A stretch of DNA of 64,000 nucleotides from Mugil cephalus (taxonomy: Eukaryota > Chordata > Actinopteri > Mugiliformes > Mugilidae): assembly GCF_022458985.1 (NCBI RefSeq), contig NC_061778.1, positions 6,961,501-7,025,500 of the forward strand. The letters run 5' to 3'. Below, piece after piece: positions 12,401-63,731 of this stretch. How positions within the stretch are numbered: the first letter of the stretch is position 1; each line of letters begins with the position of its first letter. The position numbers and the translations under genes are program-made. The notes below the pieces were generated by a model that searched no databases, was not told the origin of the DNA, and saw only the letters and a program-made list of their open reading frames with translations.

Positions 12401-15400
12401 GACGTGTTTTCTAAGAACGGGCCCGGCTGAAATTATAGCACAGTATCCGACAAAGACCAATATAATGTACATATTTCATGAGATTGATACAATTTCCTGT
12501 GACTTTCTCCTTTGCTTTTACGACCCAGACTGCGGCAAATTTCCTCAGATATTAATTCTATCAATTGCAACGAAAAACTGGACTTAAATTATTTAAAGAG
12601 CCAAGGAAACTTCAAAACACTTCTGTGTGCGAGGCCTGAAACAAAGCCACCAGGTAGGACAAATGAACAACGTAATGAACCTAATTATTTTAGTCAAGGA
12701 AGCATTAAAAACAACAACAACAGAGAATATTATATTTCCTTGTTCATTGCAGGACATGACACATCTTTAACAGAGCAGAAAACATTCACATTTATCGCAC
12801 TGATTTCATTTAAGGACTATTCGCACGTAATTTCTCTTTTTCCCATCCCGCCTTGCGTTTCGATGCTGCAGGACAACACGGTGCACAGCAGTTCACGGTT
12901 AATAGAGTGTTTTTTGTGATGAGGACAAAATGAGACAAATGGAAAAGAAACAACAAAACAGCCACTGATGATCCATTCAATCATACGAAGGCCTTTGTTG
13001 TAAGGAAAATAATCAGAGAAACGCTACGTGTCGGCGGCAAACACTGTACTAATCACATTTCAATTATATACTCACTTAAAATTACATCAGGAATGGTAAA
13101 CGTGTTATTACCGATGCCCTGAATGCGCTGTCAACTTTTAAGGCGAAATGGGTGAGAGGCTAAAAACGGAAGCACTAAAAGCACAGAGTGCCTCATCACC
13201 AAACACAAAAGAACACAAAAGTAAAGGAACCTTGAGCAGAAATCATTTTGGAAGTAGTGTCTCCAATTTAAGGACAAGCTGGAAGGTGTAAAAGTGTTTA
13301 TGTCTGCGAAAGTTCTCAGTCAGTCCACGTTATTGTTAGGGTTGCAAAGGGGTGGAAAATTTCCAGAAAAAGTCTGGAAACTTTCCATGAAAACTTCAGT
13401 CAGGGAATTTTGTGATTTTTTGTGAATTTAAGGCCTAGTGGAATTGATGGACATTAATGTGAATAAACTGGAAATTTGGGATAATTTAAAGAAATATATA
13501 TGAGTCATATGTTCTCCTAGAAGAGAACCCTAGTCTGCTAAATTTGTTGAGCTCTGGGGGAATTATTGTGGCATTCGTCATATATGTTTGTACACAATAT
13601 TTGCACATAAACAAAAACTTTCCATCAACTTTAGCTGGTGTTAAATGCTTCCACACTCTGGATGACATACGTGCATTCAAAAAAGGCAAACATGTAGCCT
13701 AAATAGAAACATATATGAGCAAGCTGAACTAATGGAAAGGTCAGAACATTTAAAACTGATGTATGAAATCTTGTGTGGTCACATAAAACCATCAAGCAGG
13801 AGGCAGAAGAAACAGCATCACATTTTGAGGTAGCTAGCATCATGATAAGCTAACTACTAGCTTACATTAAGCACATTTGGTTTACCAGTAAGCTAGCAAT
13901 AGCAATCATCATCAAAACTTACTTGACTGTATGTAGTCCTTTGGCTTCGATACTGTATCTGTGTTTTGGGCTCAGAAAAGTTGTTTTAGCAGGGAATTAG
14001 TAGGAATTCACAATGCATGTTGAGGGTGTGGCCTCAACAGCTCTGCAGGGAGTAGTGTGCTGTGATGGAGGAATAACATACTATACTCAACTGTACTCAC
14101 ATCAAATCTAAGCGTTTCAACCAAGATTATGCTCCAATATATTTTTCTACCAACTATATTATGTTCCTAACCTTCAACTTTGATAATTGCCAGTTTAAAC
14201 CAGTTAATTCCCATTAAGTCCTGTTAATTCCCATGGAAAGTTTCCAACTTTGAAAGTTCACGGAATTTTGCAAACCTAGTTATGATTTATCCAAAAAGCA
14301 TTTAGAGAAAAAGATAAAGCAACTGGTCTTATTAAGTATTGTTTCACCACTCATCTGAGCAGCTTCTTCATTTCTAGGTGGGAAATTTGAGCCTAAATAA
14401 GGAACTCTGTGGGTGTGACCCATCAGAACTGTCAGGAGACTGTTTGTCCCTGTCCTCTTTCCCTATGAACAGTGTCCTAACGAGCCATTGTCAACCAGAG
14501 GCTCCAGTCTCATGTGTTTAGTTTTGGATTAAAACAAAGACAATATATTTTAAACACTTATTGCACCAAACTGCTGCATAAAAGTAAGGAAAAGTCTTTT
14601 CATGCTGATAAACAGAAAACTAAGAGATATTAAAGAACAACGGGTGAAATTATAATAACAATTTAAATTACACTGCCTCTATTTTTGTTAATCAGCAACA
14701 ACAACAACAAAATAAATAAATTAGGCCTAAACCCATTATTCTCTTGTCTGTGAGTAGTAATTGCTGCGTAAAGTTCACAAACATGAAAATTAGTTGCAGG
14801 AAATCCTGAGCTCTGCAGATCGACCGGAGCTCCTACATCGTCATGTGGCATCGAGCTTTTCTGTCCGTATTAAAAATGCAGCATCTGGCGTGAAACGGAG
14901 CATCCTACAGGAATACATCGGAGTTTGCAATACATTCTGCTACATCTGCTCAAACTTCCCTTCTTTTCATGACTCACCCAGGGGAGGGAGATACTCGCGG
15001 AGAGAGGGAAAGACACGGCAGAGATGGGAGGACGCGGCTCTCTACATAATGCTAGGAGTGCTGATGGGAGCGCCTCCACCTCATCGTCTCTTCAGCCCGC
15101 GTAATCAAATCTGTTGTTTCCTGCCATGTTTTCAATTGAGCCACAGCGAGGGAAAGCTAGCTTTGATTTGGGAAATTCTGGAAATCACTTTACATGATGA
15201 AAGCTCCGAACGGCTCAGCCGAACGCTTTTCAGCGAGCTGCTGAATTTACATTGTCGTTGTAATAAAAGCAGATGTCCAATGCAATTAGCCAGGAAACAC
15301 TACGCTCATAACAATGAGAGAGTAAGAAGGCTGTATCTTAGGAAGAATCTGACAATGGAAAATATGTTTAGGAGTGCAGAGTTCCACTGAGAGCTATTTC

Positions 15401-25200: not shown

Positions 25201-27008
25201 GTTTTATTAATAAAGTTCAAGGCTGACAAATTTGAAACCGCGCAGGCTTTCATTAAACACAATGCACGCAAGAGCACCTTCAGAAGATCATGAATAATGC
25301 ATTTATTGCGCCAATGATACATAATATTACAAAACTAGAACCATTAAAAGTGTATTCGATCATTAGAGTCTCACAATGAGAGATAAAGCAAAATTGAGAA
25401 ACTAACTTTAAAACGTCTGTCCCACATTTAAAAAATAATAATAATAAGTCAGTAAACCAAACACATAAAACAACATAAAGCTGAAAGATGTTGTAAACTT
25501 GTAAACTTAACTGTAAAAGTTATTTAATTAGCTATGTGTTGTGCCTTTGTCACTATGACACTGATGTTAATAATTAAAAAGAAGAAGGTCAATATTCCTT
25601 TGCAAGAGTACAAACACACAAGCGTTCAACATTCATGATAACAGGGTTTGTTTGTAGATCCTGCAGAACTGAGCGTGAGCTGCAACCAACAGTGGTTTGA
25701 TTTCGTTTTAAACTGTCATATAAACGCCATAATGACCTTATTTCACATTGTTATTTTCCTTTAAATTATTAAAAGCGTGAATGTGAGAGGAGGCAAGAGA
25801 CACATAAAACAACAATGACAACGCTCAAGACGACAGTCACACATCCACAACTAGCATCTCTCATTGAAACAAAGAATATACGCCGACCAGCCATAACATT
25901 ATGACCACCTTCCTGGTATTGTGTAGGCCTCTAAAACAGTTGTGACTCATCAGAGAATGAGGCGCACCGGGGAATGAGTCCCCACTTCATTGGTTGTGTG
26001 CAGAACTTGCAGCCAAGGTCTCCTGTGATCACGATGATGAGCTTTAAACTGGACTGAAGGTGCTGAATATATTTAGATAATGAGGCCTTTTGGATGGACT
26101 GAGAAACAGAGGTGCACTAGGGGTGATACGCCAGAGGATGTTCATGCAGGTTTTTACCAAACAGCCACTTTAAGAATGATTTGTTTCACAATTCGTGTCA
26201 AATATTTGGTTTTAGTTATAATAAAGAATGTATTTGAGCAATTTAATTTAAAATTCATTCCATGTTCTTTTGCTTTGTACGGAATCCCTCAGTAAATTGA
26301 TTTATTTTAGCATCTCTCTCATAAACCTACCCATAAGTCGTCACAGTTAATTAAGTGTAAACTTCTTTTTTACTGCTTTGTGTCATTTGCAGAGCAGCCG
26401 GTTCCTCAGTGTCTCCTGGTTTTAATTAAGTCAGGTCAGGAAATGTAACATATTCAGTGTAAACAGTGGTTCTGCTGAAAAAGTCTGTTGTGCATGTATA
26501 TCTCTCAGAGACGTAAACCTCGGCATTATTTCATGAATTTCTTTTGTGTAGCTCTTTCATTATAGAATCAAATATCGCAGTGACCCGGTTTCCCAGTGTT
26601 GGTCAAAACAGTTTCAGCTGACTCCAGTTCCTCAGAGCTGCTGTGAAGGGATCAATACCAGGATGGAGGGGGAGGTCAGGTGGTTAACTGGCCTTTGGTG
26701 GCTCCACGGTATCAAAGTGCAGCAGTTCAATAGCTCGTTAGCATGCCCCACTATTTCATCACAGAATCTGAAATGCAGGAGAGGACACTTTAAATATAAA
26801 TCCACCGCTGTTTAAACTGAGACTGGTGTAATACTGTAACCCAGCGTCACCCATTCTTATAAATATTCCTCTGGGTAAGGTGGGCTTTTTAATCTCTCTC
26901 ACTGTGACGGATACTGAAGGAAGTTCAGCTGAACATTTCGAGGGTGAATACACAGACGGAGGAACGCGCAGCTCGGAAAAATCATCTGTGAAATAATGCG
27001 GCTCACCT
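22045..27008. other. Intergenic region between b3glct and wdr95
   Basis: About 5 kb between the start of the b3glct candidate and the stop codon of wdr95 (the latter transcribed towards it). The wdr95 3' untranslated region should lie in its right-hand part; a minus-strand AATAAA occurs near 26,300. A GT microsatellite lies at about 24,791-24,811 and an inverted-repeat fragment at 25,881. I see no further coding exon. Confidence 0.5.
25881..25962 (-). mobile_element. TA-flanked inverted-repeat element, end fragment
   Basis: Begins cgccgaccagccataacatt after TA and runs through tatgaccaccttcctggtat, tgtgtaggcc and gactcatcagagaatg before homology stops. Only one terminus remains. Confidence 0.65.
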
Positions 27009-42223
<15,215 letters not shown>

Positions 42224-49939: not shown

Positions 49940-50335
49940 CAGGCTGATTCAGCAAAACACAGTCTCTGGCTGAGGTTTGTGAAGGAAGCTAGTGGGTGGG
50001 CTAATTAATTGAACGCTCATGGGATGTGTTTTCTTTTGATGCACGCATGTAGCAACTGCAAACTTTTAATGTGCTTCGTTTTTGGAGCATTGAGAACTTT
50101 TTGTTTTGTTTTTGTGTCTTCAGCTGCAGATTTGCATAGTGTGATGTCAAAGGGGGCGTGTCGGGCAGGATTACAAGCCGAGAAGCTTGAGTAATCACTA
50201 TGGATACAGCTTTTATAGTTTCCCATTTGTTGGCCTTGCAACACTGTGCAGCTTCAAGGACTCGCTTTTACTTTGGATCTTATTCTCCTGTTTGATTATG
50301 ACCAAGAAAGAAGCACTCTGGAGGTAAACTTTATA

Positions 50336-53300
50336 ATGGACTCCACTGGACAATGGAGAAAATATCCAATTATACTGTTGCATTTTGTGGTAAGTGCTGC
50401 AAATGTTGAGATAACAACTTTTTTATCAATCACAATCATTAAAATGCTTCAGATGCTGTATATTTTTACATTTATGTGTTTGTGTTTTTTTTTTCTTTCC
50501 TCAGGTGTTTAATGTTGCATCCCGTCATGAACCTTCACCTGGAAATAAAGGTAATGTAAGCAGTGACAGGGAGCTTTCAGATATTGTTCCAGGGCAGCAT
50601 ACGCTCACCTCCTGGTATTATACATCTGCTGATACTGTGCTGAAGCATGGCACAGTCAGCTTACACTCTCACAACAGATGGCGATCACAGATGGCTTTCT
50701 CCAAAACTGTTTATTCATTTCAAGTGAAAGAAGACACAATACCAGGTTGGTTATCTCTCCTACTGTAAGCACACACACACACACACAAGCAACTTAACTA
50801 CCAGGTCGTAATTTCTAATATGTAGGGTGGATAAGATTATTTTATTTTGGACCCTGTAATTATGTTTTGTCCACTGTGTTGACAGGAACAGTTGTGGGGA
50901 AGCTAGACGCACTGTTTGAGGGTCTCACGCCTATCACATTCTCGGTTCAGGAGGATGACGGAGAGAACCTGTTCCTCCTCAACCCCGTCTCAGGGGAGTT
51001 CCTATTATCCCGCAGCCTCGACTTCGAAACACAAAGATTCTACATTCTCACGGTGGAGGCGCAGCAGGGGGATTCGCAGGTATCCAGTGTCAGGGTTTAC
51101 TTCAACGTGCTGGACGCCAACGACAACCCCCCGGTTTTCGGTCAGGGCGCCTTTTATGCGTCGCTGCCGGAGGACACACACGCCGGCGTCTGCTTCCTGT
51201 CATTGAATGTGTCTGATAAAGATGATGGTAAGGCATCTGAAATATGACATTCAGTAGATGTTAGGGAAATCATGTAAATCACAAAACTCAATAAAGGTAA
51301 AACAATATAAATACATTGAATCACAGATCTTCAACAAGGGGTCGAACCCTAGGGGGTTTGCGGAGGTACTGCAGAGGGGTCACAAAATATTTGGTTGATT
51401 TGACATTTTTTTAATATATACACACACACATTGTAACGTTATTCTCATTTGATGAAAAAATAAATCACATTTACATTTACACAAGTACATTTACCAATTT
51501 ATAAAACTATAAAGAGTACATTTTTAGTAGAATACATATTTGTAAAGATGTCCTATTGGTTTTACGTTAGTAGTTTCAAAGCTAGAGTTACCACTTGTGT
51601 AGGTTGCACATCAAATTTCACTCTCCCTCTTCCCCTTTTCATAGTAGAGCAGCTCCTCCAGCAGGAGACTTTGGGGTCTAAGCAATTAATCCACAACCAT
51701 CCGAGCTTATCACAGTTCAGCTGAGGCTAATTAAATGCCATTGGCATGTGATAGCATTTTTTTATTTATTTTTTTTGTAATTAGCAACAACACCAATCCC
51801 ATATTTCCAGTTCATATATCTCAAACCGAAAGCAATCAGTATCATTCAGTTGATTTTCTGCAGTGAAAAAAGCACACACACACACCACATCCACACAGAC
51901 ACACACTTTTTTATTTTTTTTTTAAGATTTTCATTTAATTATAACTTTCTGAGAAAAGTGTGTTTGCATTAAAGAAGAAATGGTGGCCTGCAAAGACAAA
52001 ACAGAACTTTTTTGTGCTATTAATGAATGCTTGATTACAGTTCTTTTATGGTAATCATGTCTTACAATCAGTAGACAGTGCTCCTTGATCTGGCTCCTTG
52101 ACTTATACAAAAGGTCAAATTGGTAAAAAAGAAAAAAAAAAAGAAAGAAAGGGGGGAAAAAGTGTGGTTTGTTTTGATATGATAACTGTCACGGTTAGGG
52201 AAGTGAACCCAAGTGCAAGCCCAGGATGTAGAGTAACTGGTTCACAGTTTATTTTAAGCTGAGGACCTGGGATAAGGCTCAGTCTCAGACAGGTAGGAGG
52301 GAACCAGAGGAAGAGTTGTGGGTTTGTAGCAGACAATGTTAAGGGAAGCCAACAGAGAAGGGTTCAGAGATCTGGGATCTGAGGGCTGAGGTGACCATAG
52401 CTGACAAGGAAATCTGATGAAGTATATAGAAGAGGAATGAAGACTGAGGGATCAAAGGAAAACAGAAACACAGAAGAAGAGGAGGAGGAGAGGAATACAA
52501 AGTGAGACAGGGAGAGTAACTACAAGGCAAGGAAGGTTAAGAGGCAGAAGCAAAGTCTGTTCATGCTTAAAAAAGAAGTAGATGATGGATGTCTTCCTTC
52601 CTTTTACACCACAAGTCTTTATCATGAGGCCGTTTCATTTTTTTTTAATTACTCGTGTCATGTTTTCCTCTATGCCAGGTGAGAACGGAGAACTGCAACT
52701 GAAAATAGCCAGTGGCGATGAAGAGGGAGCGTTCATCATACACCCAACTGGTAGTTTATGCCTGAACACAGAGTTAGACAGAGAGAGACACTCCTCCTAC
52801 AATCTGACCATTACGGCCAATGACTGCGCCCAGCCCACGGCTTTACAGTTCACCAGCACGGCACATGTTTTTGTACTAATTGAAGATGTCAACGACAACG
52901 CTCCTTCATTTGTCTCAGAAAGACTTGTTAGCATACCTGAGGACACCGCACTACATTCTGTTGTAATGACTGTATTAGCCGAGGACAAAGACACGGGATC
53001 CAATGGGGAGGTTTTGTATTATTTAGATAACACATCCGGTGGAATATTCAGCATTAATAACACAAGCGGGGAAATATACCTGGAGAAGATATTAGACAGA
53101 GAGGAGATTGATATCTTGAGTATTACAGTAAGAGCCGTGGATAGAGGCTCAAGCCAGATGGCTGCTACAATGAATGTAACGGTGCACGTGGAGGATGCAA
53201 ATGACCACGACCCTGAGCTGCCACAGAGCAACTACAGCATAGCAGTCAGAGAGGACATCGCCAGGGGAACGAGCCTGTTTCGGGTTCAGGCATGTGATCA

Positions 53301-56300
53301 AGACATCGGGTTAAATGGACAAGTGAGATACACGTTGCACCAGACGAGTCCGTTTGTGGTGGACAGAGTTCGAGGTGTAGTCACTGTCATGGATCAACTG
53401 GACCGAGAGACGGACTCCAACTACACCTTAATCGTGACCGCTGTGGATCAAGGGAACATACCCAGATCTGCTACTGCTACTATTACTGTCACAGTCTGGG
53501 ACGTCAATGACTTTGCACCCACATTTTCTCCAGAAACGCTGGTCATTCATGTCAAGGAGAATGAGGAGGACCTGACCCAACTAACACATCAGGTGCTGCA
53601 GGTTCACTAAACAATGAGTTCACTGAAACTTAGTTCTAGTGTTAATCTTGTTTTTATTTTTATTTATCAGGTGTCAGCTTTGGATGATGATTTAGGAGTC
53701 AACAGTCAGCTGAATTATTTTATAGAGAAAGGAAATGAGGATGATTTGTTCTTCATCACCCCCAATGGCACGTTCCATATTTCACAAAGCCTAGACAGGG
53801 AGAAGGAATCGCTGTATATCGTCACTATCACTGCTGTTGATTCAGGTAATTTAGATCAAAGTTGAACTGAAATAAAACAAATGATAAATAATAATGAATG
53901 TAATTTTGTCATTTGAAGGACTGCCACCATTAACGGGCACTCTGACTCTACACGTTGTAGTGGATGACGTCAATGATAATCAGCCGGAGTTTACAGAGGA
54001 AGTCTACAACACCATAGTGTACGAGGACTGTCCTGTAGGCACAGTGTTTGCCATGATATCTGCATCTGACTTGGATGATGGCGTTAATGGGGAATTAAGG
54101 TAAAATAATACATACAAATTCAAAAAACATCACATCACTGTGAGAGTTGTATTGACTTCATTTGAAGAAGTCCTTTCAGAGAAACATACACCGATCAGCC
54201 ACAACATTAAATGTTGTGTGAAGTAGTGACATGAGACATGAGAAGTAAATAACATTGATCATCTTGTGATAATTCAGTGTTCTGCTGGGAAACTTTTGTA
54301 CCTGGCATTTGCGTGGACACTGCATCCTGCAATGGCAGCAGCAGGATGTGGGGTGACACAAACACACACACAAAAATGGTTTAGGAACAACTCAAAAACA
54401 TGAAAAACAGAAAAAGGTGTTGACCTGGCTTCAAAATTCATTAAATCTCAAACTAATCAAGTATCTGTAGGCCCCTCCCCTCAACCCATAGGACCCAAAA
54501 TCCCCCACTAACAACATTGTGTTGCCAGACACCACAAGACACCCTCAGTAGGTCCATGTCCATTCTCTGATGAGTCACAACTGTTTTAGAGACTCAAGAG
54601 AGACCTACACAATATTAGGAAGCTGGTCATGATGTTATGCGTGATCCTTGTATCTTTATCAACTTCCGTTGCTGCTTTATACATAGTATGTGCACTCCTC
54701 TCCATTTAGGTATTTCATGGAAAACCTCGATGTACCTTTTGCTATTGAGGAAACATCTGGAGAACTGTTCACAACCAATTTCCTGGACAGGGAGACAGTC
54801 GCCATTTACAGGCTGACAGTTATCTGCAGTGACAAGGATCCTACTCAACCTCTGTCGAGCTCTGTGCTTGTGACTGTTCTTATAGAAGATGTCAATGACC
54901 ACTGGCCCCAGTTTATGAACGGGCCCTACGTGGCCTATGTGCCCACTGAGTTGGCTCCAGGTGAGATATGACCTCTTAACATGCACATATTTATATGCAA
55001 ACTACCTATTATTATCTTTTTTATGGCGTTTCTGTTTTTTTTATAGGTGCAGTTGTTTGTGCAGTAAGAGCAACAGATGGAGACACTGAAATGAATGCAG
55101 AGCTATATTACTCATTATATGGACAGAGTTCAGACCTGTTTTCCATCGATCCATACAGTGGCACTATATTCACTTCAAATGCTCTCCGAAGAACAGACGA
55201 TATTATCGTCAACGTGCATGTGGAGGATGCTGGAGAAAACCCCAAATTTGACACTACTACTGTCAGTATCAGGTTTCATAACATCTCCGACTTCCCTGAG
55301 ATGGATGTGGATGTTCTGAGTTATTCCTTTTCTGAGGATGAACCGGTGGGAACACTGGTGGCCATGGTCTCCGCGGAGAGCATCCGAGCTGAACCCGTCT
55401 CTTTTTATGTCGCATCTGGAAACTTTGAAGACACGTTTCATGTGGGGCAATTAAGTGGAGCACTGGCAGTGGAGAATCCCTTGGATTATGAAAACAGAAA
55501 CGAGTTTTCTTTGTTGATAGAAGCCAGAGACTCGGGCTCTCCTCCCTTCTCATCATTTGCAGAAATTCACATCAACCTAACGGATGTTAATGACAATTCT
55601 CCGCATTTCACCCAGGCTGAGTACAGGTGTGAGGTTTTTGAGAACTCCCCGCCATCCTGGGTTTGTGATCTTCTCGCTGTTGATGCAGATTCTGGCCATT
55701 ACGGTATGGTGCAGTACAACATCACAGGAGGGAACACTCATAACTTTTTCACAATTGACCCTGAAAGCGGTTTACTGAGCACAACTGCAACTTTGGATAG
55801 AGAGAGGCTTCCTGAATTCAATTTAACAGTTGAAGCTACGGAACTCGACAACCCTCTTCATAAAGATAGAGCAACTGTTATCATCAGTGTTTTAGACAGA
55901 AATGACAATGCACCCCGTTTTACAGAGATTTTCCTCACTGAGGTGCCTGAGGATGCCCCTATTGGATACACAATCGTACAAGTCACCTCAACGGATGACG
56001 ACACCGATGCTAATGCAGGAATTAATTACTCCATAATCGAGCATAGTGACGACATGCCTTTTAAAATTGACTTCACCATGGGTTACATCACTGTTGAAAA
56101 ACATCTGGACAGGGAAGTGCAGGATCACTATGTCCTGAAAGTGAATGCAAATGATTCAGCATGGAGCATAAGCACAGATGTCACTATAATCATTTTAGAT
56201 GTCAATGATAACATGCCAGTATTCTCTGATCATGTTTATAGCGTTGTGCTCCCTGAAACAAAAGATGAAGAGGTGTTTGTTTTGCAGGTTCTTGCTACAG

Positions 56301-59300
56301 ATGCAGACTTTGGGAACAATGGTGAAATTTTCTACATTATTGAACCTCAAAACGAGGAGTTTTGGATGAATACCTCCTCTGGTGAAATCTATACAAAGCA
56401 GCCGCTGATGCTGCATAATTCAGCTTTTGAAATCTATCAGTTTACAGTTATTGCTTCTGATTGTGGCAAAGTTCCACTCTATAGTAATGCCACCGTCACA
56501 GTGAGATTAGAACAACCAAACCACCACCCACCTGTGTTTTTTCCTTCACAGTCTCTCATTGCTGTTCCTTATCACCTGGCTGTGGGAGCGGAGGTGGTTC
56601 AGTTCACAGCAATGGATCTGGACACCAATAGCAGCACTAATATTGAGTATGCTTTGAATGGGGGTAATGCATCTGGTCTCTTTTCAATTGAGGCTAACAG
56701 TGGTAAAGTAATCTTAAATCAAACTTTAGCGGAGCTTGAAAATCTGTTGCTCACTTTAGTAGTCGTAGCCAAAGATCAGGGCTTCCCATCTTTAACGTCA
56801 CAGACTCAAATCACTTTTGAAGTTACCGGGAGAAATCTATTTTCTCCGAGTTTTAGCGAACCAGATGTTACGTTCTCTGTCCCAGAGGACTTGCCTGTAG
56901 GATCAGTAATTGGAAAAGTTCAAGCTGAAGACAAGGATTATGGTCCCAATGGTGCGATTATGTACTGCATTACCCCGGAAAATCGATATCTACCACTGTC
57001 TGTCGGAGAAGGCTCTGGACTGCTAATACTGATCAGAGAGCTTGACTTTGAAACAGAAGTTATTTATCACCTCCAAGTCATAGCCAAAGATGGTGGCTGG
57101 GTGTCTAAAAGTGGCATATTGAATGTTACAGTAATAGTTATGGATGTGAATGACAATCCTCCAGTCTTTTCATTGTCAGAATACACCACATCAGTGCCCG
57201 AAAACTCAGAAATTGGGACAAACATTTTAGCTGTGAGGGCTGCTGATATTGACTCAGGAGCAAATGCACAGATAGCCTACTCTCTCATAGCTGGATATGT
57301 GGATAAATTTGCAATTGATTCAAGAAATGGCACCATCACCACTTTGGAGGTCTTTGATTACGAGCGAGAGCAAGTGTTTGATTTAACGATCAAAGCTTCA
57401 AACACCGGCGGACATACTTTATTCAGTTTAGCACATGTCGTCATTCAAATCTCAGACGTCAATGAGTTCACACCAACATTCAGGATAAAAGAATTTAACT
57501 TTTCAGTATTTAAAAATGTGCCTGTTGGAAGCGTGATTGGCAAAGTGACAGCCGTAGATCATGACCGAGGTCCTGAAGGCCGGGTGTTTTACGTGATGTT
57601 TGGTCAGGATAAAAGTTTAGGTTTCGATGTTGATCTGCTTTCTGGAGAAATATATACAACGGGCAGTTTGAGGAAACAAGGCAATAGCCGTGTTGTTTTA
57701 AAAGTTTTGGCAAAGAACTCTGGTGTTATTACTGGCATGGACGTAGATGAGACTTTAGTCCACATCAGTGTGATTGACACAAACGATGCACCCGTGTTCA
57801 CCTCTGAACACTATGTAGCAGATGTAGCAGAAGAAAGTCCAGCTGGGACGTCGGTGCTAACTGTTAGCGCTACAGATCAGGACTCCATCTTGGACTGGAA
57901 TCGCTTCTTCTACAGCGTTGAAAATGGAAACACAAACTTCTCTTTCTCTGTTGACCCCTCCACTGGTGTTATTTCGGTAAACTCCCCACTTGACAGAGAA
58001 ACCTGGCCTGTTTATAATTTGACTGTTACGGCCACTGATAATGGCTCTCCACCAGCTACGGGGACCACTAACGTCATTGTAACTATTGCTGATGTCAATG
58101 ATAATGCCCCCAAACTCACATCGACTGAGGCTCAGGTGAAAGAGAATCAGCCCGAAGGCACCATAGTCGCCAGATTAAATGCAACTGATCTTGATTTGCC
58201 ACCGAACCAGGGTCCTTTTACATACTGGTTATTAAATCCCTCAGCAGGCAGTGCTTTTTCACTCACTCCTGATGGCCTTTTACTCACGACACGGATTATT
58301 GACCGAGAGCAAACCTCATCATATCAAGTCCTGGTGGCTATTCGGGATGCAGGCTTTCCCTCACCATTATCATCAACAACAATGTTCCATATCAGGATCG
58401 TGGATGAAAATGATAACCCTTCAATCCCTAGGAATATCGTCATTGAGGTGAAATATTTTGGCAGCTCTTTCCAAGGAGGCATGATTGGTAATGTCCATCC
58501 TGATGATCAAGACGAGTCAGATGCATTAATCTGCGCTATCAAAAGTGGGCCAAATAACATGTTCACGATACCTAATGGCACATGCGAGCTGTGGTCTTCT
58601 CCTTTTCATGGCGAGGCTACGTTCAATGTCACAGTCGAAGCTACGGACCAGCTTCATTTCCCAGTAAACAACAGTATCTATGTCAACTACAAGGGTTTCA
58701 CAAATGCTTCTGTAGACAGCTGTATATTATTCTACGTTTCATCACCCTCTGTGGAAGAGTTCTTGTCTAATAAGTATCTGAGGTTTGTGAAAGCTCTGGA
58801 CAGTCTGTTTAACCTCCAGGCTTCTAAGACTCATGTATTTGGAATCAAACACATTGGAAATGAAATCCTTCTGTTGGCTGCAGTCAAAAATTACAACGGT
58901 CAGTATCTTAGCAGAGAGGTAGCGAGCGGCATATCAGTGGGACATAAGAAATTACTGGAGGCTCAGAGCAATGTGACGATTTCTCACATCACCAGTGACC
59001 CGTGTCTTACCAGCCCTTGTCAAAATAGGGCATCGTGCAACAAAAACATTTACATCAGGGAGGAGGTTGCTGTCCTGGAAAGTGGGGCCGTCATCTTTGT
59101 GGCACCGCAGAAAGAGATTTTTAATTGTACCTGTCTAGTTGGATTTACAGGTACGCTCTGTGAAGATGACATTGATGAATGTGAGGCAAATCCCTGTCAG
59201 AATGAAGGCACATGCGTGAACGCCGGGGGAAGTTTCTACTGTCACTGTCAAAGCGGGTTCTCTGGCTCCGTCTGCTCTGCTGATGTAGACGAATGCCTGA

Positions 59301-62300
59301 AGGTGAAGTGTCAAAATGGTGGAACTTGTGTTCCCTCTGAAGATGGATATCACTGTCACTGTGTGCCTGGATTTGAAGGTAGACTTTGGCACATGGAGAA
59401 AGCAAAAAAAAAATATATGTGAAAAGACAGATTGTCTTAAAAATCTGTTTTATTTGTCTAGGGGAAACATGTGGGCAGTTCATAGACCACTGCAGATCAA
59501 CGCCATGTGTTCAGGGCACCTGCATCAGTTCACAGACAGGATTCACCTGTAATTGCTCTTTTGGTGAGAATAATGCATAAAGATGGAAATGTATAGAAAA
59601 AAAATATTTTTAAGGAAGGACATTTGTTTTTTGTCTTGCAAAGGTTAAATGAGAAAACTCCAAACTGTAGGTAAATGGTTAGTTTGTTAGCTTAGCTTAA
59701 AAAGTGACAACTTTAGCCTGGTGTTGTTGGAGCAAATTAAATACTAAATCACTAATTTACACATTGTTTTTTCTGTGTGATCTGTACAACATAAAGCGTA
59801 AAGATATTTACTAATTTGTGAGTTTTAAAGGTGCTAGCATGCTAAACAGGACATCTGTTTCCCTATTACCAATCATTTTGCATTCCTAAACTAAGCTAAT
59901 TGACTGCTACATATAACAAGTGCTCAAGGTCAAATTAACTGTTTGTGTATTAGTGGTTAGTAGTGTATTCCTCAAAACATTAACTCTAGATTGAACGTTT
60001 TGTGCTACAACTGTAAGAATGCATTTATTAAAACACTGTGATTCATTGTGTTTTAGGGGTCAGTGGAGTTCACTGTGAGGAGCATAGCTACGGCTTTGAG
60101 GAGCTGTCCTTCATGGAGCTTCCCCCACTGGACCGCAGGACTAATTTAATCTCTCTAGAGTTTGCGACGGTGCAGAGGAACTCCCTCCTCCTCTACAATC
60201 CCGGAGGACCATCCAGCAGGGAGTTCTTTGCATTGGAGATCCTGGATGGAGCTGTGCTTCTCTCCTATGACCTGGGCTCAGGACCAGTGAGGCTGCAGAC
60301 GCACAAACAAGTTGCAGATGGGCATTTTCACAGTGTCACTGCCAGGAGGATTGGCAACGTGAGTTTAAAATATGTTACCACACAGCAAGAAGTCATTTTT
60401 TGAAGGAAATGGAAAAAAAAATCACAGTGGTATTTGCACTTCACAGATGGTTTCTTTGCATGTGGACAACTGCACAGATGTTGAAACTAAAGGATTTTGT
60501 TTTTCAAAGAGCGATGGCAGCGGCTCAGAAAGGTAGAAGTGAAATGAAAGTCACAAATTTTACATTTCTGCTTGTAGCCTTGTGTCTGCACCTTTAACAT
60601 CTCTAATTTTTTTTTCTGTCTTCTTTACATCCAACCAGGACACTAGATGTCGGCAACACCAATATGACACTTGGAGGATTGAGGACTGTTGAAGTGATTT
60701 TACAGCATCCTGCTCAGATAAAAACCCATGACTTTGTTGGGTGTATTCGAAAAATTTATATTAATGGCATCCTGCTGAGACCTTCAATGGCCCTTGCGGC
60801 ACATAATATCTTAGACAGGTAAGCTTAGAGAATTTAAAACATGGTTAGAAAAACAGCATAATGTTCAAATACATGTGGGCTTAACAGAGAAAATGTATCT
60901 GTGTTCTTTTGGTACATGTCTGAATTTTGACAAACATGCTTTCCACCTTGTGTTTATTTCATAAAGGTGTCCTCGAGCAACAGCGCCAGGTTGTCACAGC
61001 GTCCCATGCAGGAATGGTGGTGTATGCCACGATCTTTGGTCTGACTATCTTTGTGAATGCACAAGCCCTTTTACGGGAAGAAACTGTGCCAAAGGTAAAA
61101 AATAAAAAAATAATAAAAATAAATAAAACAGATTTTTAACATTTCTTTTAAATATTGTGTTTGAAGTTTTTGTTCATTCTTTGAACAGAAATGTCAGAGG
61201 AGCTTGTGCTGAGATTTAACGGGAGTGACTACATTGAATATGTTATTAAGGAGAGTTTCAAGAGAGACTATCTCCTGAAGAACTTGGTGAAGGATGAAAA
61301 AGAGGCCGACAACAAAGACCAAACTGTGATTAACGTCAAGTTCAAGACCAAAGATGACGGAGTATTGGTGTTTGTTCTTGGACAGACAGGATACATAATG
61401 CTGAAGGTGAGTGTGAAAACTGTTTAGATATTTACCTATCTCTCCCTGTTTATATGTCAAATGTAAAACTGCTTTTTTTCTTTTCATTTCCCAGATAAAA
61501 GACAGAAGGCCTGTGTACATTTTCAAAGACATGCTGTCGGGACAACTGTCAGAGTTTATTGTAGAGCCTCCTGTGGCTGATGGCTTCTGGCATGTGCTCT
61601 CGCTGTTCAGCAATGGACAAATCACTTTTCTCTACGTGGACGGTAAACCAGTCTTAAACGACACCGGTCAAAGCATAGATCTAAGTCCAGTTAGTGTGGA
61701 AAAGATCGTGCTAGGTGCAGCTCCAGTGGGCGAAACACAGCTCCTTCAGTCAGGTAAAGATAAGCATAAATCTGATTACTAAAATCAAAATATGAATATA
61801 TACACCGATCAGCCACAACATTAAAACCACTGTCAGGAGAAGTAAATAACATTGACCATCTTGTGACAATGCATTGTTCTGTTGGGAAACTTTTGGACCT
61901 GGCATTTAGGTTGATGTTCCTTAGACATGTAGCACCCACATAGACCAGACCAGGCACCCCCACCCCATAGCAATGACACTCCTTGATGGCAGCAGCCATC
62001 CCCAGCCGGATGCAGCCTGACACATACACAAAAACGGTTTAGAAACAACTCAAAAACATGAAGAACAGCACAAAATGTTGACCTGGCCTCCAAATTCACT
62101 AGATCCCAAACTGATCAAGTATCTGTGGGATGCAGCAGAACAAGATGGATCCACAGAGGCCCCTCCCCTCAATCCACAGGACCAAAAGGTCCCCACGTTT
62201 GTGGAGCACCCTGAGAAAGCCCGTGTCCATTCTCTGAAGAGTCACAACTGTTTTGGAGGCACAAGTCATAATGTTATGCCAGATCGGTGTATATAGTATC

Positions 62301-63731
62301 TCCTAGTTTTGTATTTCTGGCCGGCTATTCTTTCTGATCCTTACATAGCAGCATGCTGACTTACTGATCTATCAATAATACTGGCTCTGAACTGTCTTCC
62401 TTATTTTTGCAACAGGGTTCACTGGATGCGTGCAGTATTTCAATGTGACCGGTTACACTCTGCCCGTCAGTGGACACAGCTTAATGGCGGACGTATGGCC
62501 GAGCTCCACGCTCACCCAGTCCAGCTGCAGCTCTGCAGGCGTTTGCCTCTCCTCTCCATGCTACGAGGAGCACACTGCCAAGAGGACTTGTGGATCTGCT
62601 GAGCAGAACAGATCCTGCATCTGTTTACATAACGTCTCGGACCACTCCTGCGATATCTGCATCTCCGCAACAGACACCCAGGATATGTGCTCTGCAATGA
62701 AGGGCAGCGTTCCTCTGTGGCTCATAGCTGTGGTTCTTCCTCTTGTCTCCCTCCTGGTGATTATTGGAATGGTTTATATCTTTTACAAGGCGAGGCAGAA
62801 GGATGTAAAGTGTCAGAGTGAGAGCTTGACGCAGAAAACCGAGCAAGGGAAAGATAATGTAGCTTTCTGTTTTAATGCCAACACAATGCTCACAGAGGCT
62901 CACAGAGTGTCTCCAGAAAAAGGAAAACTACATGAGCCGATGAGCGCAGATCAGCAGGAGTTTTACTGTGATGTCAATCTGCCAAGTGTACAGCCGGTGT
63001 CGAATAGTGAGCTGGAGTATTATGAGATCAGCAGCATCTGTAGTGCATTTCATTCAGACAACACCTCTCTGAAACTCAGCTGGCACAAGCATTTATACAG
63101 CACAAAGTGTGTGGACAACGGTCCTGGGCAGTGGGGAGATTTGAGGATGTTGTTTGCGGGTTTTAAGAAGGAAAGCTCCATCGAAGAAAAACAGACTCAT
63201 AATGTTTCTTTCTTAAACAAACAGTTGCTGACTGAGCTCGACGCAGAGCCAAAGCTACCTTATTATATGAAGCAGTTCATACAACCAGATCTCCTGGAGC
63301 CAATACAGAGTCTTACCTTTGAAGAAATTAGCAAACTGAACACTCCTCTGGAGCAAACGCTGCCACATCAAGCACGGCTGAAGTCTGGGCCCCCGACAGT
63401 GACGGATATCTCATCTGAGAGTGAGACAGGCAGCACATTCACCTGCTCAGAGTCTGATTGTGGGCAGTTTTCTACCAACTGTGGCAGGAAACACACACAT
63501 TACCAGTCATCCATGTTAGCCTGCAACTTAAGGCAGCAAACCTGCCTCTGTGCTGCAGGTCATGTTAGAGCTGCGAGTATATCCACCGATATGTTTGAAC
63601 AGTGGGAACATATTTTAAATTTGCACCTTCCTTTTAGCAGCTACGCTCCAGTCTTTGAGGATATTGCGTGTCTACCCACTGAACCCAGTCACGGCTATGA
63701 TATTCAAAGTGACATAGAGGAAATTATTTGA
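50336..63731 (+). CDS. Fat-like atypical cadherin with EGF and laminin-G domains; complete 16-exon coding model
   Basis: Exons 50,336-50,389; 50,505-50,745; 50,886-51,227; 52,679-53,592; 53,671-53,845; 53,919-54,099; 54,710-54,960; 55,047-59,378; 59,462-59,563; 60,057-60,358; 60,447-60,532; 60,639-60,818; 60,967-61,094; 61,189-61,406; 61,495-61,753; 62,416-63,731 give 9,027 nt, 3,008 residues plus stop. The start was chosen for its leader (KYPIILLHFVVFNVAS). Cadherin repeats run from about residue 86 to 1,825 (17 clear repeats with LDRE and DxNDNxP motifs), then one degenerate repeat and a conserved juxta-EGF region. EGF1 starts near 2,018, EGF2 and 3 (DIDEC, DVDEC; calcium-binding type) near 2,075-2,145, EGF4 ends near 2,180. 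Laminin-G, EGF5, laminin-G and a Cys-rich stretch follow. The membrane segment is about 2,669-2,693 and the tail about 315 residues. EGFx4-LamG-EGF-LamG is the Fat4/Drosophila Fat layout, but Fat proteins have about 34 repeats. A type III (DN-cadherin-like) origin is the main alternative. Expected role: homophilic or heterophilic adhesion and planar polarity at the cell surface. Confidence 0.85.
52180..52560 (+). repeat. Interspersed repeat candidate in cadherin intron 3
   Basis: The words tgtcacggttagggaagtga and acccaagtgcaagcccagga resemble a repeat seen often in fish introns, followed by a purine-rich tract (about 52,430-52,560). Intron 3 also has AC-rich and T-rich simple sequence near 51,420 and 51,870-51,930. 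Class not determined. Confidence 0.3.
54189..54650 (+). mobile_element. Complete TA-flanked inverted-repeat element in cadherin intron 6
   Basis: Begins caccgatcagccacaacatt and ends gatgttatgcgtgatccttg, flanked by TA on both sides (54,187-54,188 and 54,651-54,652). About 462 bp, same orientation as the 61.8 kb copy. No transposase, so non-autonomous; the TA duplication points to the Tc1/mariner superfamily. Confidence 0.75.
61803..62289 (+). mobile_element. Complete TA-flanked inverted-repeat element in cadherin intron 15
   Basis: The best-preserved copy of the family (487 bp). It begins caccgatcagccacaacatt, ends ataatgttatgccagatcgg then tg, and is flanked by TA at 61,801-61,802 and 62,290-62,291. 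The terminal 8 bases are perfect inverted repeats and the next dozen nearly so. Open frames on either strand are accidental. Confidence 0.8.

What the first reader, a model, noticed from the sequence alone, without database searches (positions are those of the whole stretch)
50336..63731. A compact Fat-like cadherin: Fat4-type membrane-proximal domains on about half the usual repeats
The exons join in phase to one 3,008-residue protein that has its own signal peptide and an upstream TATA box, so it is not simply the 3' end of a larger Fat gene; hmgb1 lies immediately upstream. It carries EGFx4-LamG-EGF-LamG-membrane segment as in Fat4, yet only about 17 clear cadherin repeats instead of 34. 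Its total length and repeat count are closer to type III cadherins such as Drosophila CadN, but the tail is not a clear catenin-binding classic tail. It may be a little-described vertebrate Fat/CadN-like lineage.
Basis: partly seen in the sequence, partly recalled or inferred. Interest (0 to 1): 0.75.

Follow-up and report, generated by a model that had tools for sequence, protein, structure and literature searches.

The report
Shortened Fat4 cadherin paralog in fish
This fish gene is a second copy of the giant cell-polarity cadherin Fat4 that has lost the first half of its repeats and starts with a short exon of its own, so one of Fat4's two known contact sites for its partner Dachsous is gone while the region of the other remains.

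Summary
Sixteen exons at 50336-63731 join in phase to one 3,026-residue protein (reader: 3,008) with 17 cadherin repeats, EGFs-LamG-EGF-LamG, a membrane span and a non-catenin tail. The window's genome (634.8 Mb, 24 contigs, most likely a teleost) also holds a canonical fat4 on C5. Compact exons 2-16 match fat4 exons 3-17; 14 of 14 shared introns agree in position and phase, and compact repeat k best matches fat4 repeat k+17 in 16 of 17. It is a fat4 paralog keeping EC18-34; an 18-codon signal-peptide-like exon stands in place of fat4 exons 1-2, and EC17 is unrecognisable. It is not CadN-like. No missing repeats were found upstream in the window. A LamG1 search found only these two Fat4-type genes. 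Linkage to hmgb1 and an nbea-like gene, and equal distance from fish and (recalled) human Fat4, point to an old vertebrate duplication. By homology it lacks Fat4's EC1-4 Dachsous site but keeps the region of the second (EC26-30). Mechanism is inferred; expression and distribution are untested.

The parts
50336..50389 (+). Exon 1: start codon and 18-codon signal-peptide-like segment; stands in place of fat4 exons 1-2
   Evidence: donor gtaagt; hydrophobic stretch PIILLHFVVF; no fat4 match better than E 1.3
50505..50745 (+). Exon 2: counterpart of fat4 exon 3; only its 3' end is recognisable, repeat EC17 is lost
   Evidence: same entry phase 0 and exit phase 1 (241 v 262 bp); FSKTVYSFQVKED v FSRVTYSFDIPED at the 3' end (E 0.89 alone); 15 of 75 aligned residues identical
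50886..51227 (+). Exon 3: repeat EC1 (= fat4 EC18) and start of EC2
   Evidence: 53 of 112 identical to fat4 exon 4
52679..53592 (+). Exon 4: EC2 to EC5 (= fat4 EC19-22)
   Evidence: 128 of 305 identical to fat4 exon 5
53671..53845 (+). Exon 5: EC5
   Evidence: 25 of 58 identical; same length (175 bp) as its fat4 counterpart
53919..54099 (+). Exon 6: EC5-EC6
   Evidence: 30 of 60 identical; same length (181 bp) as its fat4 counterpart
54710..54960 (+). Exon 7: EC6-EC7
   Evidence: 30 of 84 identical; same length (251 bp) as its fat4 counterpart
55047..59378 (+). Exon 8 (4,332 bp): EC7-EC17 and first EGFs; EC9-EC13 (residues 908-1427) correspond to fat4 EC26-30
   Evidence: 620 of 1,441 identical to fat4 exon 9 (4,350 bp)
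59462..59563 (+). Exon 9: EGF
   Evidence: 14 of 34 identical to fat4
60057..60358 (+). Exon 10: first LamG domain
   Evidence: LamG; 54 of 101 identical; best other match in the genome is fat4
60447..60532 (+). Exon 11: LamG1 continued
   Evidence: 8 of 28 identical; same length (86 bp) as its fat4 counterpart
60639..60818 (+). Exon 12: LamG1 end
   Evidence: 27 of 60 identical; same length (180 bp) as its fat4 counterpart
60967..61094 (+). Exon 13: EGF between the LamG domains
   Evidence: 21 of 42 identical
61189..61406 (+). Exon 14: second LamG domain
   Evidence: 20 of 72 identical; same length (218 bp) as its fat4 counterpart
61495..61753 (+). Exon 15: LamG2 continued
   Evidence: LamG, below cut-off; 24 of 84 identical
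62416..63731 (+). Exon 16: end of LamG2, juxtamembrane segment, membrane span and a 314-residue cytoplasmic tail with some Fat4-type blocks
   Evidence: (124 of 430 identical)

Best explanation
What it is (shown): a paralog of fat4 whose protein keeps Fat4's EC18-34, EGF-LamG-EGF-LamG block, membrane span and a shortened tail with Fat4-type blocks. Its 5' half is gone: an 18-codon signal-peptide-like exon is joined, at a phase-0 junction, to the counterpart of fat4 exon 3, which no longer encodes a recognisable EC17. Origin (supported, not proven): one of the early vertebrate genome duplications, kept in this fish beside hmgb1. How it works (inferred): a short Fat4-type surface receptor with half of Fat4's repeats. 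It lacks the EC1-4 site for Dachsous EC1-4, so any Dachsous contact should use the second, membrane-nearer site (Fat EC26-27, human Fat4 EC26-30), whose counterpart here is EC9-EC13. With only part of the Fat4 tail, it most likely tunes Fat4-Dachsous planar polarity signalling, by occupying the second site or joining Fat-Dachsous clusters, rather than replacing Fat4. My confidence is about 0.97 for the identity, 0.7 for the old duplication and 0.35 for the mechanism; the score below is for the whole.
For: 14 of 14 shared introns at the same alignment column and phase. Repeat k best matches fat4 repeat k+17 in 16 of 17, both ways. Exon 8 aligns to fat4 exon 9 over 1,441 residues at 43%, 1137 bits against 390 for the next-best place, in fat4 exon 1. 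LamG1 finds fat4 at 5.3e-26, next match 1.1e-6, 27 of 27 first-look candidates scored. The C5 gene is canonical Fat4: 319 of 419 residues identical to human Fat4 EC1-4 (8egw_B). Tail block WEHILNLHLPFSSYAPVFEDIACLP scores 61 against a maximum of 51 in 200 shuffles. Linkage: nbea-like gene 0.42 Mb away on C9 and hmgb1 about 2.3 kb away; fat4 has a Sprouty gene 0.32 Mb away on C5. Two-site Fat-Dachsous binding: PMC9935876 (passages) and PMC11497213 (abstract, passages and two sections).
Against: No expression data, so exon 1 as the real start is unproven. Fat4 splice sites were chosen from the list with the compact phases known, and compact repeat boundaries for one search came from the fat4 alignment. 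EC26-27 counterparts are not unusually conserved (41% and 51%; all repeats 28-55%), so conservation gives no special support to retained Dachsous binding; the EC28|29 calcium linker is degraded and the EC29 counterpart is the most diverged (28%). The chained tail score is only modestly above shuffles (5 of 200 reach it; a local score was reached by 3 of 300). The two-site paper found no significant effect of deleting Fat EC26-30 in cell culture and says the role of the Dachsous C-terminal site is not conclusively proven. Against solved structures exon 8 matches CELSR1 best and human Fat4 EC1-4 only 18th of 54, though no solved chain of Fat4 EC18-34 was seen.
Confidence: 0.6

Rival explanations
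1. Teleost-specific duplicate: one of two fat4 copies from the fish genome duplication that lost its N-terminal half and evolved very fast.
For: Would also give one full and one shortened copy in the same fish, with all shared introns conserved.
Against: The copy shares fish-only and human-only Fat4 residues equally, 22 against 21 in 415 columns (human stretch recalled). Its neighbours are hmgb1 and an nbea-like gene, while a Sprouty gene sits by fat4 on C5; of 8 Sprouty-domain hits the only one on C9 is the lowest-scoring, 2.85 Mb from the gene.
Confidence: 0.25
2. It does not engage Dachsous at all: a shortened Fat4-type cadherin with its own adhesive partner or matrix role, for example through its LamG/EGF block.
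For: EC1-4 absent; EC26-27 counterpart shows no extra constraint; tail much diverged. A 'protocadherin fat 4-like' protein is reported in fish otoliths (PMC9992438, two passages), but I cannot link it to this gene.
Against: EC26-30 counterparts are all present; deleting EC1-4 leaves Fat-Dachsous binding and polarity in flies (PMC11497213).
Confidence: 0.35
3. Assembly or model artefact: the 3' part of a larger cadherin gene whose 5' exons lie elsewhere.
For: It corresponds exactly to the 3' exons of fat4, exon 1 is tiny and unverified, and split Fat4 gene models are a known annotation fault in other animals (PMC10734073 passage).
Against: No match to fat4 exons 1-3 in window 1-50335; hmgb1 lies about 2.3 kb upstream on the same strand; exon 1 has an ATG in good context (A at -3, G at +4, by eye), a hydrophobic stretch and a strong donor.
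Confidence: 0.05
4. A type III (CadN/Hz-type) classical cadherin.
For: Similar length, repeat number and an EGF/LamG membrane-proximal block (reader; general knowledge).
Against: No catenin-binding domain found in the tail; intron-by-intron and repeat-by-repeat match to fat4. No type III sequence was compared directly.
Confidence: 0.01

Closest known systems
Fat4 (canonical fat4 of the same genome, C5:25355871-25468558; human Fat4 PDB 8egw_B)
   Same: EC18-34, EGFs-LamG-EGF-LamG, membrane span, some tail blocks; 14 of 14 shared introns
   Different: No EC1-17; own short first exon; tail 314 v 471 residues; about 40% identity over exons 3-16; gene span 13.4 kb v 112.7 kb
Fat1/2/3-type cadherin (C2:18.85-18.91 Mb; type judged from architecture and recall)
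   Same: Cadherin repeats, LamG and EGFs
   Different: Its LamG-matching segment precedes the EGFs, and matches compact at 30% against 47% for fat4 over exons 10-12 (89 of 189)
Type III classical cadherins (Drosophila CadN, chicken Hz-cadherin)
   Same: About 15-17 repeats (start of PMC8325961 abstract in the listing) and an EGF/LamG membrane-proximal block (recalled)
   Different: No catenin-binding tail found here; sequence and introns match fat4
Laboratory Fat lacking EC1-4 (Drosophila, PMC11497213)
   Same: N-terminal Dachsous site removed, membrane-nearer site region kept
   Different: Natural gene, lacks EC1-17, tail diverged; binding not tested

Membership tests
Fat4 | Fat4-type membrane-proximal order: EGFs-LamG-EGF-LamG | tested here: met
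Fat4 | 34 cadherin repeats | tested here: not met
   17 repeats, matching EC18-34; so it is filed as a Fat4 paralog, not as Fat4
Fat4 | N-terminal Dachsous-binding repeats EC1-4 | tested here: not met
   No counterpart of fat4 exons 1-2 in the gene or in window 1-50335
Fat4 | Counterpart of the second Dachsous site (EC26-30) | tested here: met
   Sequence counterpart EC9-EC13 present; binding itself not testable here
Fat4 | Intron positions and phases of fat4 | tested here: met
   14 of 14 shared introns
Fat4 | Fat4 cytoplasmic tail blocks | tested here: inconclusive
   C-terminal block exceeds 200 shuffles (61 v max 51); the whole chain is reached by 5 of 200 shuffles; long Fat4 stretches absent
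Type III classical cadherin | Catenin-binding cytoplasmic domain | tested here: not met
   No such Pfam match at E <= 0.1
Fat1-3 | LamG preceding the EGFs, closest sequence to Fat1-3 | tested here: not met
   the repeat comparison used only 2 repeats of one Fat1-3-type gene
Vertebrate-age (2R) fat4 ohnolog | Split from Fat4 before the human-fish split | tested here: inconclusive
   (22 v 21, recalled human stretch) and linkage searches support it; no other vertebrate genome was available

The most novel reading that the evidence does not exclude
A fifth vertebrate Fat gene: a fat4 ohnolog from the early vertebrate genome duplications, kept beside hmgb1 in fishes and lost in mammals, which became a natural 'one-site' Dachsous receptor by discarding EC1-17 and acquiring a new signal-peptide exon, so that evolution itself separated the two Fat-Dachsous binding sites.
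Probability: 0.25. Interest if true: 0.75.

Novelty: new variant of a known kind. Interest (0 to 1): 0.5.

Why it matters
Fat-Dachsous signalling sets tissue polarity and growth, and recent work proposes two separate contact sites (PMC11497213). A natural Fat4-type gene with the region of only one of them, in an animal that also has full-length fat4, gives a direct way to ask what each site does in a vertebrate. If the gene is as old as the linkage suggests, it also adds a member to a family counted as four in vertebrates (PMC10734073 passage).

Tried and rejected
CadN/type III membership: rejected. Fat1-3 membership: rejected. Missing repeats upstream or in introns: none found. Rfam search of the window: 0 matches. 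Solved-structure search with the tail: 5 chance membrane-span matches; with exon 8: CELSR1 first, human Fat4 EC1-4 18th of 54, uninformative because these repeats are not counterparts. Longer exon-4 donor at 53601: rejected because fat4's boundary matches the 53592 one. Literature searches for Hz-cadherin, Fat5/fat4a/fat4b/fat4-like, 'protocadherin Fat 4-like' and ohnologs gave no description of this gene; passages of PMC7035326 held nothing on Fat4 duplicates. Codon scoring beside fat4 and beside the window gave few recognisable neighbours. Genome searches with Mab21, TRPC and the compact tail did not complete, so those checks are missing. No structure was predicted.
Full report
The observation. 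I rebuilt the gene from raw sequence. Sixteen exons from 50336 to 63731, all with AG/GT boundaries, join in phase to an open frame of 3,026 codons and a stop. Exon frames carry cadherin repeats, EGF and LamG domains and no catenin-binding C-terminus (Pfam, E <= 0.1). The start has a hydrophobic stretch at residues 11-20 and there is one strong membrane span within about 2683-2714. The claimed TATA box is only TTTATA at 50212. An HMG box about 2.5 kb upstream on the same strand scores best against HMGB1 chains, then HMGB2, then HMGB3.

What it is. The window's genome has 634.8 Mb in 24 contigs and the window is C9:6961501-7025500. A 166-residue piece from exon 8 finds itself, then one place on C5 at 1.8e-30, then other cadherin frames from 3.4e-10 (150 of 333 candidates scored). 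I built the C5 gene's DNA: 17 exons, 4,972 residues, ending EQYV (still lacked the short exon 2, added). Its N-terminal repeats match human Fat4 EC1-4 (8egw_B) at 319 of 419 residues, so it is canonical fat4.

Compact exons 2-16 correspond to fat4 exons 3-17. All 14 shared introns fall in the same alignment column with the same phase, and 6 of the 15 paired exons have equal length. The fat4 splice sites were picked from a printed list by consensus, but I knew the compact phases. Over exons 3-16 the two proteins share 1,178 of 2,911 aligned residues (sum rows; exons 1-2 left out as not reliably alignable; over all rows 1,197 of 3,004). Each compact repeat k is most similar to fat4 repeat k+17 in 16 of 17 cases, in both directions; the exception in the forward direction is compact EC12, whose counterpart EC29 ranks second (repeat boundaries came from the alignment, and two fat4 boundaries outside EC18-34 were set at midpoints). 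So the protein keeps fat4 EC18-34, half of the usual 34 repeats. A search of exon 8 against solved structures puts CELSR1 first and human Fat4 EC1-4 18th of 54; those repeats are not counterparts, so this does not bear on the assignment.

What was lost. Fat4's 5.1-kb first exon and 132-bp second exon have no counterpart; the 54-bp exon 1 takes their place. Exon 2 enters in phase 0 and leaves in phase 1 like fat4 exon 3, and its last residues match, but the rest of EC17 is not recognisable (15 of 75 identical). No match to fat4 exons 1-3 lies in 1-50335, and none to either protein at E <= 0.01 in the window with the compact exons masked. A search with LamG1 returned the compact gene, fat4 (53%, 5.3e-26) and then ten weaker matches from 1.1e-6 that I did not identify, with 27 of 27 first-look candidates scored, so two Fat4-type genes are present as far as this exon shows. 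A Fat1-3-type gene on C2 has a LamG-matching segment ahead of its EGFs and matches less well.

The tail. The cytoplasmic part is 314 residues against 471 in fat4. The C-terminal block (WEHILNLHLPFSSYAPVFEDIACLP v WDNLLNWGPGFGHYVDVFKDLALLP) scores 61 against a maximum of 51 in 200 shuffles; SSESETGSTFTCSESD v SSESDSHDSFTCSEME scores 49, which is below that maximum. As a chain the tail scores 255 against a shuffle mean of 205, reached by 5 of 200 (Fat4's lysine-rich stretch masked); an earlier unmasked local score of 63 was reached by 3 of 300. So the tail appears derived from Fat4's but much eroded.

Age. Over 415 columns from LamG1 to LamG2, human and fish Fat4 agree at 295, human and compact at 155, fish and compact at 156; where human and fish differ, compact sides with fish 22 times and with human 21 times. 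A teleost-only duplicate should side with fish. Linkage agrees: an nbea-like gene lies at C9:6.579-6.597 Mb (neurobeachin 88 v LRBA 66 bits) and hmgb1 beside the gene, while fat4 on C5 has a Sprouty gene 0.32 Mb upstream. Related genes sit on C15 (neurobeachin 91.4 v LRBA 87.5) and C2 (LRBA 89.3 v neurobeachin 86.6), so the nbea-like link is not unique to C9. I recall human NBEA and HMGB1 on chromosome 13, and FAT4 and SPRY1 on chromosome 4, with the two chromosomes sharing many duplicate pairs. Planned checks with Mab21 and TRPC did not complete. No other vertebrate genome was available, so distribution, including loss in mammals, is unknown here.

How it may work. Human Fat4 EC1-4 binds Dachsous1 EC1-4, and Fat4 EC4 is indispensable (PMC9935876, passages). 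A second site has been mapped to Drosophila Fat EC26-27, with human Fat4 EC26-30 binding human Dachsous1 EC10-27; flies lacking Fat EC1-4 still show Fat-Dachsous binding and polarity. The same paper found no significant effect of deleting Fat EC26-30 in cell culture, though a strong one in flies, and calls the role of the Dachsous C-terminal site not conclusively proven (PMC11497213: abstract, passages and sections 8 and 12 read). The compact protein lacks the first site and keeps the repeats of the second as EC9-EC13. Those repeats are not specially conserved: EC26 41%, EC27 51%, EC28 45%, EC29 28%, EC30 45%, against 38-55% for the other twelve, and the EC28|29 calcium linker is degraded. My best mechanism, a short receptor that contacts Dachsous only by the second site and modulates Fat4-Dachsous signalling, is therefore inference (about 0.35), with a Dachsous-independent role a close rival.

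Novelty. Ten literature searches listed no paper describing a second, shortened Fat4 in vertebrates. One search listed a fish otolith proteome naming a 'protocadherin fat 4-like' protein (PMC9992438, two passages read), which may or may not be this gene. One search showed 25 of 85 hits and one search showed 10 of 115, and the library omits most subscription journals. Genome databases may well carry the gene under a generic name. I rate it a new variant of a known kind.

Noticed in passing
window 54188-54230 and 61800-62300: Introns 6 and 15 both hold stretches with the words 'acaccgatcagccacaacattaa' and similar following sequence, probably copies of one dispersed repeat (read by eye).
   Followed up: no
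window about 27000-39500, minus strand: Codon scoring shows minus-strand coding-like segments; one at 35200-35295 has a weak WD40 match (E 0.064, below cut-off), possibly a WD-repeat gene upstream of hmgb1.
   Followed up: partly
window 14794-15387, plus strand: A 198-codon open frame with a weak, below-cut-off match to an OTT_1508-like deaminase model (E 0.0039).
   Followed up: partly
G000:C5:12.05-12.55 Mb, minus strand: Dozens of cadherin matches in open frames mostly near 800 codons, presumably a clustered protocadherin array.
   Followed up: no
L033, C9:7031553-7031675, minus strand: A short receptor-like frame ending in NPAIYCFKTKDI, resembling an olfactory-type receptor (by eye).
   Followed up: no
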